DNA of 64,000 bases from Polynucleobacter aenigmaticus. Its GTDB lineage: Bacteria; Pseudomonadota; Gammaproteobacteria; Burkholderiales; Burkholderiaceae. The position numbers were made by a program, and so were the translations under genes. How positions within the stretch are numbered: position 1 is the first letter of the stretch; each line of letters starts with the position of its first letter. Positions 13,837-53,167 of this stretch are shown here, piece by piece. The notes beneath the pieces were generated by a model. The model had not been told where the DNA came from. It worked only from the letters and a program-made list of their open reading frames with translations, and made no database searches. The stretch covers positions 1-64,000 of the forward strand of contig NZ_NGUO01000008.1 of the NCBI RefSeq assembly GCF_002206635.1. Reading direction: 5' to 3'.

Positions 13837-14997
13837 CTAAATAATTTTTCTAACCTTGAGGGATAGATAGACAGCGGCCCCCGCTAAAGCCATGAGCACC
13901 ATGACGATATAGAAAGATTCCTTAAGGCCAGGTAAGTCTTCCATATTCATTCCCATAATTCCAGTAATGAGGGTCATTGGCAAAAAGATGACTGTCATCA
14001 CCGACAGCACTTGCAAGTTACGCGCATTGAATTCGGCGACATGGGCGGCCTGTTCATCTTGTAGCACTTTGGCGCGATCATACAAGTTGGAAATTTCCTG
14101 AACCAGGTAGGAGAGTAAGTCCAGGTCATCATTGAGTCGATATTTATCTTCATCAGAAAACCAATAGGGTAAGCGCTTTTGTAAGCGATTTAATGCAATC
14201 AGTTCCGGTGAGAACTGGCGACGCAGACGACTGCATTGAATGCGTATCCTACCGAGATATTCATGTTCAGGCAATTCCTTGCCCTTCAGAAGAATCTCTT
14301 CTAAATCATCCATTGTTTCGGAAAGGCGTATCAGCAAGGTGCGTAAATACTCCGCACGCAAATCAATCAATTCATGAAAAAGTTCAATAGCTGAGCATGG
14401 GTTCAGTAAGCCACCCCTTAAATCTGATCGCAATCGATCGGTCGTTCTGAGGGGATTATTTCTTAAGGAAATCATCAGACGAGGTGTCAAGATAGCCCAT
14501 AAGGTTCCAAGACTAGAGTCACTATCCTTCTCACCAAATTCTTGATGAAAGTCATTCATCACCATCAATAGGCAGTCATCCAATTTTTCAATTCGTTCTA
14601 GCCGACTGCGGGTAACTCCCTCATCAATCATTTCAACTACGCGATCCGGTATGAGGGGGGTATTTTTTAACCAACGCTGTACTTGAGAGTTGGTTAAGTT
14701 GAGGTGTAGCCAAATCGATAACTCTGGGTCATTGAGGGCATCGGCAATGTCAAAGAGCGGGATCTCATGATTTTTCCCAGAGGGTGTCATGGCCCAGGCA
14801 AATACGACACCATTAATTGGGAAGGGATGGGTTAGGTTTTCAGTCACAACAGTAGGGGTGTATTTATCGAATATTGATTGATCTTTATGCATTGTAAGGT
14901 AGGTGTGTTGTAAATATACCCACGACATCTGTTTGCCATATTTACTATCTAAGATATCCGTAGGGGCGAACTGAATCGCTCCGTGAAAGGGACCCAA
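13837..14997 (-). CDS. CorA/ZntB-type divalent cation transporter
   Basis: CorA-family proteins form pentameric Mg or Zn channels. The protein has a large cytoplasmic N-terminal domain and two C-terminal helices, with the pore signature in the form GIMGMNMEDLPG at the end of the first helix (LSVMTVIFLPMTLITGIMGMN). The second helix is SFYIVMVLMALAGAAVYL. The Mg/Zn choice cannot be read from the sequence. The start is uncertain: 14997 gives 386 residues, while ATG 14928 (MSWVYLQH) and ATG 14892 (MHKDQSIF) give 363 and 351; none has a good ribosome-binding site. Confidence 0.88.
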   Translation of the reverse strand: MGPFHGAIQFAPTDILDSKYGKQMSWVYLQHTYLTMHKDQSIFDKYTPTVVTENLTHPFPINGVVFAWAMTPSGKNHEIPLFDIADALNDPELSIWLHLNLTNSQVQRWLKNTPLIPDRVVEMIDEGVTRSRLERIEKLDDCLLMVMNDFHQEFGEKDSDSSLGTLWAILTPRLMISLRNNPLRTTDRLRSDLRGGLLNPCSAIELFHELIDLRAEYLRTLLIRLSETMDDLEEILLKGKELPEHEYLGRIRIQCSRLRRQFSPELIALNRLQKRLPYWFSDEDKYRLNDDLDLLSYLVQEISNLYDRAKVLQDEQAAHVAEFNARNLQVLSVMTVIFLPMTLITGIMGMNMEDLPGLKESFYIVMVLMALAGAAVYLSLKVRKII

Positions 14998-33899: not shown

Positions 33900-33976
33900 C
33901 TGCCTATAGCTCAGATGGATAGAGCAACGCCCTTCTAAGGCGTAGGTCGCACGTTCGAATCGTGCTGGGCAGGCCA
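33900..33976 (+). tRNA. tRNA-Arg (anticodon TCT), integration site of the island
   Basis: A 77-nt cloverleaf. The acceptor CTGCCTA pairs with TGGGCAG (33966-33972), discriminator G and encoded CCA. The anticodon stem is ACGCC/GGCGT with loop CTTCTAA, giving TCT. Bases 33932-33972 are repeated exactly at 50547-50587, so the 3' half serves as attL. The discriminator is G here but A in the distal copies, which suggests the island brought its own tRNA 3' end. Confidence 0.95.
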
Positions 33977-48869: not shown

Positions 48870-48942
48870 GTTGGAAGAGGGTGTCGCGCTAAACGTGGCA
48901 CCCATCGCTGAGCAATCCAACTTTACTTTAATAAGGAAAACT

Positions 48943-49968
48943 ATGCGAGCCGTTGTTATAAAACCCCACTCAATTGTCTTTAATAAAGTCGAACGCTTAA
49001 TCCATGTAAATGGAATGAGTTTCGAAGAGGAATTCATTGCAAAAGTCATCAGTGAGCATTTGGCTAAACAGAAAAATGGCAAGCTGCCCACAATCACAGA
49101 TGCCTTTGAGATTTATATGCACGAAGCTAAATCTTCTCATCGCTCCACTTTTGTTAAACACGCAAACTATCACTTTCGCAGTTTTAAGGAATTCTTTGGC
49201 GATTTAACTCTAGATGAGCTCAAGCATTGGCACATTACTGAATACAGGGATTACCAATTAAATAGAGGATTAAGCCCTGTAAGTATTCGTAAACATAACA
49301 ACACCCTTAATGCCATGCTAAATGTAGCTTTTAAACATTTGAATATAGATAGGCTAAGCCCATTTAGAGCATTAAAAATTAGAGGTGAGGGCGAAACAAA
49401 ACGTTCAATGCCAATCATCACCACTCTGTTGATAAACCAAGTAAAAGAGCATTTATTAAAAAGCCCTTCGCCACACAAATTGATAGCATTAATCCAGCTT
49501 AATACTGGATTTAGATTATCTGAGCCGTTATTTGCTAGGTTGGAAGACTGTGTTCTAGATCACGACATTCCGCACTTGTGGATTAGGCGGAATGCTTTAA
49601 GTGATAGAAAGACCAAGTCCAGCATTAGGGCTGTGCCACTTTGTGGCGTTTCGCTTGATGCCGCTAAAGAGCTATACAAGATTGCTAAGAAGCGAAATAG
49701 CGATTGGTTTGTACCGCATTATGCAAGGGATAACGGTAATTCAAGTTGCTCTCAAATCATTAAGAAAACCTTAAAAGAGTTTGACTTCAAAAGCCATATG
49801 TTTAGGCATGCAATCATTGATAGGCTAAAGGCTTGTAATGACATACCTACACGTCTAGCGGAGAGTATTACAGGGCATAGTAGTGGCGGCAGCGAATTTA
49901 ATATGTATGGGACTGTAGGTTACACACTAGAGCAAAAGCGAGATGTGATTTTGAAGGTATTGATTTAA
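48943..49968 (+). CDS. Tyrosine recombinase (integrase 3)
   Basis: About 341 residues with an N-terminal SAM-like domain (DAFEIYMHEAKSSHRSTFVK, HITEYRDYQLNRGLSPVSIR) and a catalytic domain: LNTGFRLSEPLFARLEDC with the first Arg, TKSSIRAVPLCG with Lys, HMFRHAIIDRLKA (HxxR), TGHSSGGSEFNMYGTVGYTL with His and Tyr. ATG 48943 follows AAGGAAAACT and is preferred to TTG 48871, which has no ribosome-binding site. It is the recombinase nearest the right att copy (50547), the usual place for the island integrase. Confidence 0.87.
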   Translation: MRAVVIKPHSIVFNKVERLIHVNGMSFEEEFIAKVISEHLAKQKNGKLPTITDAFEIYMHEAKSSHRSTFVKHANYHFRSFKEFFGDLTLDELKHWHITEYRDYQLNRGLSPVSIRKHNNTLNAMLNVAFKHLNIDRLSPFRALKIRGEGETKRSMPIITTLLINQVKEHLLKSPSPHKLIALIQLNTGFRLSEPLFARLEDCVLDHDIPHLWIRRNALSDRKTKSSIRAVPLCGVSLDAAKELYKIAKKRNSDWFVPHYARDNGNSSCSQIIKKTLKEFDFKSHMFRHAIIDRLKACNDIPTRLAESITGHSSGGSEFNMYGTVGYTLEQKRDVILKVLI

Positions 49969-50546: not shown

Positions 50547-50587
50547 CTTCTAAGGCGTAGGTCGCACGTTCGAATCGTGCTGGGCAG
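50547..50587 (+). repeat. attR: 41-bp copy of the tRNA-Arg 3' half
   Basis: Identical to 33932-33972 and covers anticodon loop to acceptor. The next bases are ACCA, with discriminator A where the intact tRNA has G. It marks the right border of the island and cannot be a functional tRNA, because the 5' half is absent. Confidence 0.9.
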
Positions 50588-50684
50588 ACCAAATTCATAT
50601 TTCTTTGTATAAACCTAGGCTGTTCTATTGCGCTCAATTGACTTAATCATGAATCAAGCTTGATTGGCATATGAGCCCCAGTCC

Positions 50685-51239
50685 TTAATTGGAAATATTG
50701 CGCAAAACCTCGATGCGCTCACTTAATGGTGGGTGACTCATAAACAAGCGCTTTAAGCCTGTCGCCATACCGCCAGAGATGCCAAAAGCCTCCAATTGCT
50801 CTGGTAGATGCGTTTGATTGGCTGATTTTTGCAGGCGCTCAAGGGCACTAATCATTTTATGCTTGCCTTCAAGGTAAGCGGCTCCAGCATCTGCACGGTA
50901 CTCGCGATGACGACTAAACCACATCACAATTGCAGTAGCTAGAATACCCAGTACCAATTGCGCAATGATTGTAGTGACCCAATAGGCTGGCCCATGCCCT
51001 CGCTCTGTCTTGAAAACTAGCCGATCAATAATGTGTCCTACAACCCTCGATAAGAAGAATACGAAGGTATTAACAACCCCTTGGATAAGCGCTAGGGTCA
51101 CCATGTCACCATTGGCAACGTGACTTACCTCATGGGCTAGTACTGCTTCCGCCTCATCACGAGTCATACCTTGTAATAGGCCAGTGCTTACCGCTACCAA
51201 GGAATTATTGCGGAGCATGCCAGTGGCAAATGCATTGAT
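50685..51239 (-). pseudogene. htpX: htpX, 3' part (interrupted)
   Basis: Encodes the C-terminal about 184 residues of the membrane zinc protease Htp[21 protein letters not shown], the zinc site in [15 protein letters not shown] (HEVSH), membrane helices and [14 protein letters not shown]. HtpX degrades damaged inner-membrane proteins and overlaps in function with FtsH. The reading frame is intact but separated from its start by an IS element, so the protease is presumably lost. A TTG at 51242 could start this part but has no ribosome-binding site. The 5' part is at 52618-52950. Confidence 0.92.
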
Positions 51240-51309
51240 CAAAAGCGCGACAAACCTCGTCTCTTTAGGGCGGGGAAGGATAGCGTATCGGCGCAGCCGA
51301 TTTTTAGTG

Positions 51310-51338
51310 TTGGGGTTTCATTAATGACTGTATATAAT
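51310..51338 (+). promoter_or_regulatory. tnpB promoter
   Basis: TTGGGG (51310-51315), a 17-bp spacer and TATAAT (51333-51338). The start point would fall about two bases before the ATG at 51347, so the tnpB message is probably nearly leaderless. Confidence 0.6.
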
Positions 51339-51346
51339 CACAGTAT

Positions 51347-52573
51347 ATGCAACGCCTTTCAGCCTATCGCTTCGAGTTAAAACTCAATGGTGCGCAACAG
51401 CGCCAGTGCGCTCAGTTTGCAGGCGTTAAACGCTATATCTACAACAAAGCATTGGCCCTGCAACAGACCAATTACGCACAAGGCAACAAGTACATCAGTT
51501 ATGCCAGCATCGCAAAACACCTTAGTCCTTGGCGTAATGATCCTTTGGCACCATGGCTAAAAGAGGCTCCATTTCATACCCAGCAACAAGCACTCAAAGA
51601 CCTCGATCGTGCTTACAGCAATTTCTTTAAAGGTTTGAGCGATTTTCCCAAACCCAAGAGAAAAGGGCTTCATGAATCCTTTCGCTTTCCCGATCCCAAA
51701 CAGATTCAATTCGATCAGACCAACTCGCGCATTAAGTTGCCTAAGCTGGGTTGGATGCGCTACCGCAATAGCCGTGAAGTATCAGGTGAGCTGCGCAATG
51801 TCACTATTAGCCAGTCTGGCGGCAAATGGTTTATGTCCATTCAGACGCAAATGGAAGTCGATCAACCCATACCAGAAGGAGTTGACGCGGTTGGCATCGA
51901 TGTAGGTATTGCGAACTTTGCGGCCCTATCTAACGGTATTTTTATTGCGCCACTCGCCAGTTTTAAAAAACACGAGCAGCGCCTGGCCAAGTATCAACGG
52001 CGCATGAGTCATAAGGTCAAATTTAGCTATAACTGGAAAAAGGAAAAAGCCAAAGTTAATCAGATTCATAGCGATATTGCCAATGCTCGTAAAGACTTTC
52101 TGCACAAAACCACTACAACGATTTGCAAAAACCACGCTCTCGTTTGTATTGAAGATTTGCAGATTAGCAATATGTCTACGTCGAGCAAAGGCACTATCGA
52201 AAACCCTGGCAAGAATGTCAAAGCCAAGTCGGGATTAAACAAAGCTATTTTGGATCAAGGTTGGGGGGAGTTTAGACGCCAGCTAGAGTACAAGATGGCC
52301 TGGAATGGCGGCATGGTGATTGCAGTGCCACCGCAATACACCAGCCAAGCTTGCCCTAATCTTCAGTGTGGCCACATTGCCAAAGAGAATCGCAAGACCC
52401 AATCTCGCTTTAAGTGTGTATCTTGTGGTTATGAGAATCATGCTGATACGGTTGGTTCAATCAATATTTTAGAGCGCGGATTGCGCTTGTTAGCTTGTGG
52501 AGATCCGATGCCGTTAGATCGGTCTGTGAAGCAAGAACCCACCGAGACGACTTTCGATGCCCTTGCAGCGTAA
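51347..52573 (+). CDS. tnpB: TnpB RNA-guided nuclease, full length
   Basis: The 408-residue protein has an N-terminal wedge/helix-turn-helix region (RQCAQFAGVKRYIYNKALAL) and three RuvC motifs: VGIDVGIANFAALSNG (first Asp), LVCIEDLQISNMS (Glu) and NHADTVGSINILERG (last Asp). The zinc ribbon is ACPNLQCGH ... KCVSCGYEN. TnpB uses a guide RNA from the element's right end to cut empty donor sites next to its TAM, promoting repair from the copy that holds the element. All catalytic residues are present and there is no frameshift, so it may be active. It lies antisense to htpX. Confidence 0.93.
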   Translation: MQRLSAYRFELKLNGAQQRQCAQFAGVKRYIYNKALALQQTNYAQGNKYISYASIAKHLSPWRNDPLAPWLKEAPFHTQQQALKDLDRAYSNFFKGLSDFPKPKRKGLHESFRFPDPKQIQFDQTNSRIKLPKLGWMRYRNSREVSGELRNVTISQSGGKWFMSIQTQMEVDQPIPEGVDAVGIDVGIANFAALSNGIFIAPLASFKKHEQRLAKYQRRMSHKVKFSYNWKKEKAKVNQIHSDIANARKDFLHKTTTTICKNHALVCIEDLQISNMSTSSKGTIENPGKNVKAKSGLNKAILDQGWGEFRRQLEYKMAWNGGMVIAVPPQYTSQACPNLQCGHIAKENRKTQSRFKCVSCGYENHADTVGSINILERGLRLLACGDPMPLDRSVKQEPTETTFDALAA

Positions 52574-52617
52574 GCGTGGTAGGAATCCTCTTCCCTTCAG
52601 GGAGGGGAGGATGTCAA
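52480..52617 (+). ncRNA. Predicted omega-RNA scaffold at the right end
   Basis: The 3' end of tnpB and the right end should give the guide-RNA scaffold. The last hairpin pairs ATCCTC (52585-52590) with GAGGAT (52607-52612) and TTCCC with GGGAG around TTCA. The scaffold would end at 52617. The guide would be the next 16-20 bases of the flank, starting ATCAGGGGAGTC, which is htpX sequence. The 5' end is unknown. Confidence 0.45.
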
Positions 52618-52950
52618 ATCAGGGGAGTCATAAATGGCAACTTCTGGCATACCGATACCAGCAGCCTGTGCTTGGCGTGCTACCGTACTAACTAACCACT
52701 GCTCTTGTTCATTTTGGGGTTGCGTAATGACATAAGCGCCAGTTGAGTGCTTAGCCATTGATTTTGACATTGCTAAAGAGATGAATGAACCCGTGATTCC
52801 AACGACGGCCGATAACATTAATAATGAACTGAGATCAAGGTCGACGCCCTGTGCATCTAATATTTTCCCCAAGCCAAAAATATTAATAATGATTGTGATC
52901 ACCAACATAATGGCGATATTGGCCAATAAGAAAAGAAAAATACGTTTCAT
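52618..52950 (-). pseudogene. htpX: htpX, 5' part (interrupted)
   Basis: Encodes the first 111 residues of HtpX: two membrane helices (IFLFLLANIAIMLVITIIIN and LSSLLMLSAVVGITGSFISL), the conserved AKHSTGAYVI and MPEVAIYDSPD. Beyond 52618 it runs into the IS element, adding LTSSPP before a stop at 52597. Joined to 50685-51239 it would give a normal protein of about 295 residues. Confidence 0.92.
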
Positions 52951-53140: not shown

Positions 53141-53167
53141 GTTCGAATCGTGCTGGGCAGACCAAAT
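53141..53167 (+). repeat. Second tRNA-Arg 3'-end scar
   Basis: The 27 bases from GTTCGAATCG through CAGACCAAAT are identical to 50568-50594 at attR and include the A discriminator. The bases just before differ from the tRNA. It is probably the scar of an older integration at the same tRNA gene. Confidence 0.75.

What the first reader, a model, noticed from the sequence alone, without database searches (positions are those of the whole stretch)
50685..52950. htpX split by a tnpB element whose empty site can be rebuilt to the base
Removing 51240-52617 restores YDSPD-INAFATG in frame. The target is TTGAT and there is no duplication, matching ISDra2-like biology. The insertion inactivates a membrane-stress protease gene and is reversible by exact excision, so it may be recent or act as a natural switch. 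FtsH is intact and could cover the loss.
Basis: seen in the sequence. Interest (0 to 1): 0.6.

Follow-up and report, generated by a model that had tools for sequence, protein, structure and literature searches.

The report
SOS-boxed RNA-guided element splits htpX
A small mobile DNA element that carries an RNA-guided DNA cutter has landed precisely inside a bacterial membrane-protease gene, and its cutter gene sits under what looks like the cell's DNA-damage alarm switch, an arrangement seen in every scored transposase-less relative of this bacterial genus.

Summary
A 1378-bp tnpB element (51240-52617) lies 3' of TTGAT in htpX without duplication. A copy 97% identical in protein, in another genome (G135), has the same ends 3' of another TTGAT. 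None of 21 htpX orthologues in 186 genus genomes carries the insertion.

The 'reversible switch' reading is not supported: no IS200-type tnpA was found in this genome, and the guide next to the covarying omegaRNA end matches the empty htpX site, so an active TnpB should cut revertants.

The surprise is the promoter. A perfect LexA box (51328-51343) ends three bases before the tnpB ATG. recA and a umuD-like gene here carry the same motif; lexA carries a one-mismatch version. In the genus, 26 of 26 scored tnpB genes without a neighbouring tnpA have this box at the start codon; 0 of 7 with tnpA do, and closely related TnpBs fall on both sides. Outside the genus boxed solo tnpBs are a minority; none was seen beside tnpA.

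Best explanation: a self-guarding, transposase-less TnpB element whose nuclease is predicted to be SOS-induced. LexA binding, induction and cleavage are inferred, not shown.

The parts
50685..51239 (-). C-terminal part of htpX with the M48 peptidase domain
   Evidence: Pfam PF01435, E 4.4e-33
51235..51239 (+). TTGAT target site / predicted transposon-adjacent motif
   Evidence: same motif beside the G135 copy and the G143 relic
51240..52617 (+). Whole tnpB element, 1378 bp, no tnpA inside
   Evidence: Ends fixed by the G135 copy and by 45 right ends
51328..51343 (+). LexA-type SOS box CTGTATATAATCACAG; TATAAT at 51333-51338 lies inside it
   Evidence: same motif before recA and a umuD-like gene of this genome
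51347..52573 (+). tnpB, 408 aa, RuvC residues D185, E269, D367 present
   Evidence: Pfam PF01385, PF07282, PF12323
52529..52617 (+). Right end / predicted omegaRNA scaffold with covarying helices
   Evidence: 13 of 20 pairs with changes on both sides in 33 sequences
52618..52637 (+). Predicted guide (about 16-20 bases), equal to the htpX flank 3' of the empty TTGAT site
   Evidence: guide position inferred from ISDra2 (PMC8612924, passages)
52618..52950 (-). N-terminal part of htpX

Best explanation
This is a transposase-less IS200/IS605-type TnpB-omegaRNA element that inserted exactly 3' of TTGAT in an accessory htpX gene and inactivated it. Its tnpB promoter is overlapped by a LexA operator next to the start codon. 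In undamaged cells LexA is predicted to keep tnpB silent, and with it the omegaRNA, which in known systems is cut from the tnpB message. On DNA damage LexA falls, and TnpB and RecA rise together. TnpB, guided by the flank, then cuts an htpX copy that lacks the element (a revertant, or an allele brought in from a relative), and RecA-dependent repair copies the element back. The insertion is thus self-guarding, not a reversible switch, and its guard is timed to damage and recombination. Shown by sequence: exact ends, target, split gene, RuvC residues, covarying right end, guide match, perfect SOS box, and the association of box with absence of tnpA. Inferred: LexA binding, induction, cleavage, homing, and loss of HtpX function.
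For: Exact ends and target. Intact orthologues in relatives. No IS200-type tnpA in the genome. RuvC residues present and ISDra2 TnpB match. Covarying right end: 95.6% of cells paired against 81.9% in shuffles, 0 of 500 as high. Box: CTGTATATNNNNACAG occurs 7 times in the genome and 0 times in the reversed control, before recA, a umuD-like gene and five tnpBs; lexA has a one-mismatch version next to its ATG. Genus: 26 of 26 scored solo tnpBs boxed, 0 of 7 tnpA-linked, with at least 5 switches on well-supported branches. Order-wide control: 29 loci with CTGTATATAATNACAG read outside this genome, 18 lexA-like, 4 recA-like, 2 UmuD-like, 5 other, 0 tnpB. Only tnpB among 66 ATG open frames of 100 aa or more in the window has the box at its start.
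Against: No expression, binding or cleavage data. CTGT-N8-ACAG alone is not rare: 2 in the window against 0.79 expected. The promoter scan did not list this promoter; its -35 is weak. The paired test has only 5 independent pairs and cannot go below p 0.0625, and the labels are not clustered on the tree beyond chance. Most solo tnpBs outside the genus lack the box. Orthologues differ from the guide at 2 to 7 of 20 bases and 4 of 21 lack TTGAT, so cutting of foreign alleles may be poor. With no tnpA in the genome an empty site may arise rarely.
Confidence: 0.62

Rival explanations
1. An ordinary recent insertion of a tnpB-only element. The palindrome is only an AT-rich -10 region shared by descent, and tnpB is not SOS-regulated.
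For: The box contains TATAAT; related elements within a family share their upstream DNA; the motif by itself is not rare.
Against: CTGT and ACAG are kept in 26 of 26 while inner positions vary (18 to 26 of 26 for the commonest base) and upstream DNA differs between families; the box is absent in 0-of-7 tnpA-linked close relatives; the motif marks recA, a umuD-like gene and, in the order, mostly lexA.
Confidence: 0.22
2. A reversible switch: a TnpA supplied in trans by another element excises the insert exactly and restores htpX.
For: Exact empty site without duplication; a decayed cousin in G143 with its own tnpA has similar ends and lies 3' of TTGAT, so trans-mobilisation is possible in principle.
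Against: No IS200-type tnpA found in this genome; TnpB should cut the restored site.
Confidence: 0.05
3. The SOS-boxed tnpBs serve mainly as a damage-induced defence or host function against incoming plasmids or phages rather than for element retention.
For: This genome keeps five boxed tnpBs with no IS200-type tnpA; boxed relatives occur on two viral contigs and on Shewanella and Variovorax plasmids.
Against: The guide here matches its own flank, the empty htpX site, as expected for retention; many copies in the genus are short pieces.
Confidence: 0.1

Closest known systems
ISDra2 of Deinococcus radiodurans (IS200/IS605 family)
   Same: TTGAT target without duplication, TnpB with RuvC residues, structured right-end RNA with the guide in the flank (PMC8612924, passages); excision and insertion raised by irradiation (PMC2806898, passages)
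   Different: ISDra2 has tnpA; this element has none, and carries a LexA box on tnpB. I saw no such box reported for ISDra2 in the passages read
tnpB-only members of IS200/IS605 (IS1341-like group; name recalled)
   Same: Isolated tnpB between typical ends; isolated tnpB genes are noted in PMC8612924 (passage)
   Different: The SOS box at the start codon
Tn5/IS50 transposase repressed by LexA (title in the reference list of PMC2806898)
   Same: A mobile-element gene tied to the SOS repressor
   Different: There the transposase is controlled; here it is the RNA-guided nuclease of an element without a transposase
TnpB gene drive on plasmids (PMC11870625, passages)
   Same: TnpB favours DNA that carries the element over DNA that lacks it
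   Different: No SOS control described in the passages read; the term SOS does not occur in its main text

Membership tests
IS200/IS605-type element | Insertion 3' of a short target without duplication, ends fixed to the base | tested here: met
IS200/IS605-type element | Carries a Y1 transposase TnpA | tested here: not met
   None inside the element and none of IS200 type found in the genome; tnpB-only members are known, so this places it among the non-autonomous ones
TnpB / OMEGA nuclease | TnpB domains and three RuvC acidic residues | tested here: met
TnpB / OMEGA nuclease | Structured omegaRNA at the right end followed by a guide from the flank | tested here: met
   Covariation; variable following sequence. 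The RNA itself was not observed
TnpB / OMEGA nuclease | RNA-guided cleavage beside the target motif | not testable with these tools
   -
LexA (SOS) regulon | CTGT-N8-ACAG operator overlapping the promoter, as in bona fide SOS genes of the same genome, with a LexA present | tested here: met
   motif in PMC8565304 (passage)
LexA (SOS) regulon | LexA binding and damage induction | not testable with these tools
   -
TldR (nuclease-dead TnpB regulators; recalled) | Loss of RuvC residues | tested here: not met
   All three residues present in the window TnpB

The most novel reading that the evidence does not exclude
When a TnpB-omegaRNA element loses its transposase, its nuclease gene is repeatedly captured by the host DNA-damage regulon. 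In this genus (at least five switches on well-supported branches of the tree) and sporadically on plasmids and viral contigs, solo tnpBs carry a LexA operator placed on the start codon, much as lexA itself does here. RNA-guided homing would then fire only when damage has also raised RecA: an SOS-timed gene drive that persists without any transposase in the genome.
Probability: 0.5. Interest if true: 0.78.

Novelty: new variant of a known kind. Interest (0 to 1): 0.62.

Why it matters
How tnpB-only elements persist without a transposase, and when bacteria let an RNA-guided nuclease act on their own chromosome, are open questions. A LexA operator on tnpB makes both directly testable: it predicts that the nuclease, and probably its guide RNA, appear only in damaged cells, together with the repair machinery needed to copy the element. 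It would tie the ancestor of Cas12 to a stress response and offer natural damage-inducible TnpB systems. The htpX insertion alone is ordinary.

Tried and rejected
Excision by a resident transposase: rejected, the only Y1 protein found is 234 aa and genus-wide in kind. Old fixed split allele: rejected, 0 of 21 orthologues share it. A second intact htpX: not seen; one search counts two matches in this genome, the second too weak to be among the listed rows. Single-strand folding of the left and right ends was uninformative (z -0.54 and -0.09); the covariation test was informative. For it I used 33 of the 46 right ends (window included), leaving out 13 by eye (odd length or similar to others). 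My pattern for TTGAT plus this left end hit only the window and G135 copies among 81 rows, so the target of most relatives is untested. Rfam at E up to 1 over the element: nothing. One search is anchored on the box, so its 26 of 26 for CTGT is by construction (the other 255 half-sites reach at most 3 of 26); the unanchored evidence is. Rows dropped: I scored the 35 of 61 tnpB matches with open frames of 270 aa or more: 26 solo, 7 tnpA-linked, one unboxed at a contig end (G166:C149, tnpA not visible), one with its 5' end off the contig (G145:C53); 26 shorter ones were not scored. In one search I scored 30 of 50 matches outside this genome. Of 78 and 1840 plasmid records I read 18 and 5.

Full report
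1. The observation. htpX lies on the minus strand and is interrupted by 51240-52617. The left flank ends in TTGAT (51235-51239). Joining the flanks restores ...YDSPD-INAFATG... in frame, 111 plus 184 codons. A copy 97% identical in protein in genome G135 shares this stretch and lies 3' of TTGAT at an unrelated place. A decayed cousin in G143 with a broken tnpA also sits 3' of TTGAT and ends in GATGTCAA. In 45 family relatives the right end is conserved up to AGGATGTCAA and followed by 44 different sequences. The boundaries are exact and the target is not duplicated.

2. Relatives of htpX. Among 186 genomes of the genus, 22 including this one carry an orthologue at 88% identity or more over the C-terminal half; three more have one at 55-56%. 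All 21 others read through the site, 20 without a stop and G001 with one TAG. In 16 of 16 read with longer flanks the two parts abut exactly. htpX is thus accessory here and the split allele is private to this genome among those searched. In the 16 relatives nothing but htpX, its short flanks and, in two, a tRNA-end-like stretch aligned with the window.

3. Protein and RNA. The 408-aa protein has three TnpB domains; ISDra2 TnpB matches at E 1.5e-47, and only an AI-designed nuclease scores higher among solved structures. D185, E269 and D367 are present (positions found by motif, consistent with the alignment). The last 89 bases form helices in 33 relatives: 13 of 20 pairs show changes on both sides, 95.6% of cells pair against 81.9% in shuffles, 0 of 500 as high. 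The bases that follow are the predicted guide and match the empty htpX site beside TTGAT. Against 21 orthologues the 20-base guide has 2 to 7 mismatches, and 17 of 21 keep TTGAT. ISDra2 TnpB cuts next to TTGAT with a guide from the flank, and its authors proposed that this reinstates the element by repair (PMC8612924, passages). That TnpB processes its own mRNA into omegaRNA is taken from the title and abstract start of PMC10278001 (search listing).

4. No engine for excision. The genome has one Y1-type match, a 234-aa protein. Across the genus 180 of 186 genomes have a Y1 match, but matches of IS200-type strength (E below 1e-25) were listed only in G142, G143, G145, G147 and G161. A reversible switch has no visible engine here, and an active TnpB would be expected to cut the restored site.

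5. The promoter. CTGTATATAATCACAG (51328-51343) ends three bases before the tnpB ATG. CTGT-N8-ACAG occurs twice in the window against 0.79 expected, so presence alone proves little; but of 66 ATG open frames of 100 aa or more only tnpB has it at its start. In the whole genome CTGTATATNNNNACAG occurs 7 times, and 0 times in the reversed control: before recA, before a umuD-like gene followed by a umuC-like frame, and before five tnpBs, four of them only 28-36% identical to this one. The genome has one LexA, whose gene has a one-mismatch box next to its own ATG. In 330 genomes of the order, 34 had CTGTATATAATNACAG. I read 29 loci outside this genome: 18 precede lexA-like, 4 recA-like and 2 UmuD-like genes, 5 others (two radical-SAM, two SocA-like, one without a family), none tnpB (Pfam run on 10 of the 29, the rest by sequence motif). 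In E. coli the LexA motif is CTGT-N8-ACAG (PMC8565304, passage).

6. The genus-wide association. PF07282 finds 61 matches in 24 of 186 genomes. Of the 35 with open frames of 270 aa or more, 26 have no tnpA beside them and all 26 carry an exact box at the start codon: it begins 17 bases before the start in 21, 19 in four and 21 in one. G098 has ATT at the start position and G014 an in-frame stop further on. Seven have tnpA beside them, and none of these seven has the motif anywhere in the 2.2 to 2.8 kb read. Two could not be classed. The same TnpB lineages fall on both sides: G147:C82 (with tnpA) and G171 (solo, boxed) are 90% identical; G142 (with tnpA) and G000:C8b (solo, boxed) 86%. G143 holds both kinds. 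The seven come from five genomes, and two are near copies (G147:C82, G161). A tree of 34 needs 6 changes of state, 5 forced by well-supported branches; the labels are not clustered beyond chance. Five of five independent pairs go the same way, which cannot go below p 0.0625. The decayed tnpA-bearing cousin of the window element lacks the box.

7. Outside the genus. Window-family relatives: 81 rows, some the same genome in two collections; 0 of 50 with tnpA and 5 of 31 without are boxed, the 5 being the window, G135 twice, L083 and L109. Class-wide: 30 loci scored, two with the 5' end off the contig, 0 boxed, 9 of the 30 with tnpA. Viral relatives found by protein: 18, 0 boxed. Viral contigs found by the pattern box plus ATG: 24, of which 2 are window-family tnpBs without a tnpA match. 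Plasmids: 23 loci read; 3 of 18 solo are boxed (two Shewanella records with what looks like one element, and one Variovorax), one more has one mismatch, and 0 of 5 with tnpA are boxed. So the arrangement is the rule among scored solo copies of this genus, occasional elsewhere, and not seen beside a tnpA.

8. Reading. The simplest account is that solo tnpB elements here belong to the SOS regulon. That would keep a nuclease off in healthy cells and raise it together with RecA when breaks and recombination occur. This timing argument is inference. ISDra2 excision and insertion rise after irradiation (PMC2806898, passages), and TnpB elements act as a drive on plasmids (PMC11870625, passages), so links between damage, recombination and this family are plausible.

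9. Literature. Searches of the open library for TnpB with LexA (10 papers), TnpB with LexA and SOS response (2), TnpB with SOS box (0), IS605 with LexA and insertion sequence (5), LexA with transposase and SOS box (20, 15 listed), Polynucleobacter with LexA (3) and TnpB with DNA damage response (23, 10 listed) showed no title or abstract start reporting a LexA box on tnpB. Of the ten TnpB-LexA papers I read passages in two: PMC2806898 and PMC11437467 (LexA-like and TnpB are separate phage genes there). Subscription papers are mostly not held. The genus name Polynucleobacter is my guess from genome size and family; no call named it.

Noticed in passing
window 33900-33976, 50568-50591, 53141-53164: The 3' end of tRNA-Arg(TCT) at 33900-33976 is repeated (24 bases, 1 mismatch between tRNA and copies) on both sides of the split htpX, with a tyrosine recombinase gene at 48871-49968: looks like one or two islands at tRNA-Arg, htpX lying between two att-like repeats. 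Two of 16 relatives also have such repeats near htpX.
   Followed up: partly
L154:1436-1451: lexA of this genome has a one-mismatch SOS box (CTGTATACAATCCCAG) one base before an ATG, the same layout as the tnpB boxes.
   Followed up: partly
L160, L158, L156, L161 (G000) and relatives: The second tnpB family lacks the usual RuvC-II glutamate at the aligned place (FVGNV in place of IEDL), in solo and tnpA-linked members alike; perhaps a relocated catalytic residue.
   Followed up: no
L044:1454-2259: Relic of a window-family element in G143 with a frameshifted divergent tnpA between left end and tnpB, TTGAT at its left end and no SOS box: an apparent tnpA-bearing cousin.
   Followed up: partly
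L027 (G001): An htpX orthologue with one TAG stop, an apparently independent inactivation.
   Followed up: no
L384-L407: Viral contigs with an SOS box directly before ATG; at least ten start with MNSV or MNSI, a short unknown frame repeated across contigs.
   Followed up: no
L316, L318, L321, L326: SOS boxes before a radical-SAM gene and before a SocA-like gene in other Burkholderiales genomes.
   Followed up: no
window 13992-14007: A second CTGT-N8-ACAG (CTGTCATCACCGACAG) in the window, not at the start of an ATG open frame of 100 aa or more; likely chance.
   Followed up: no
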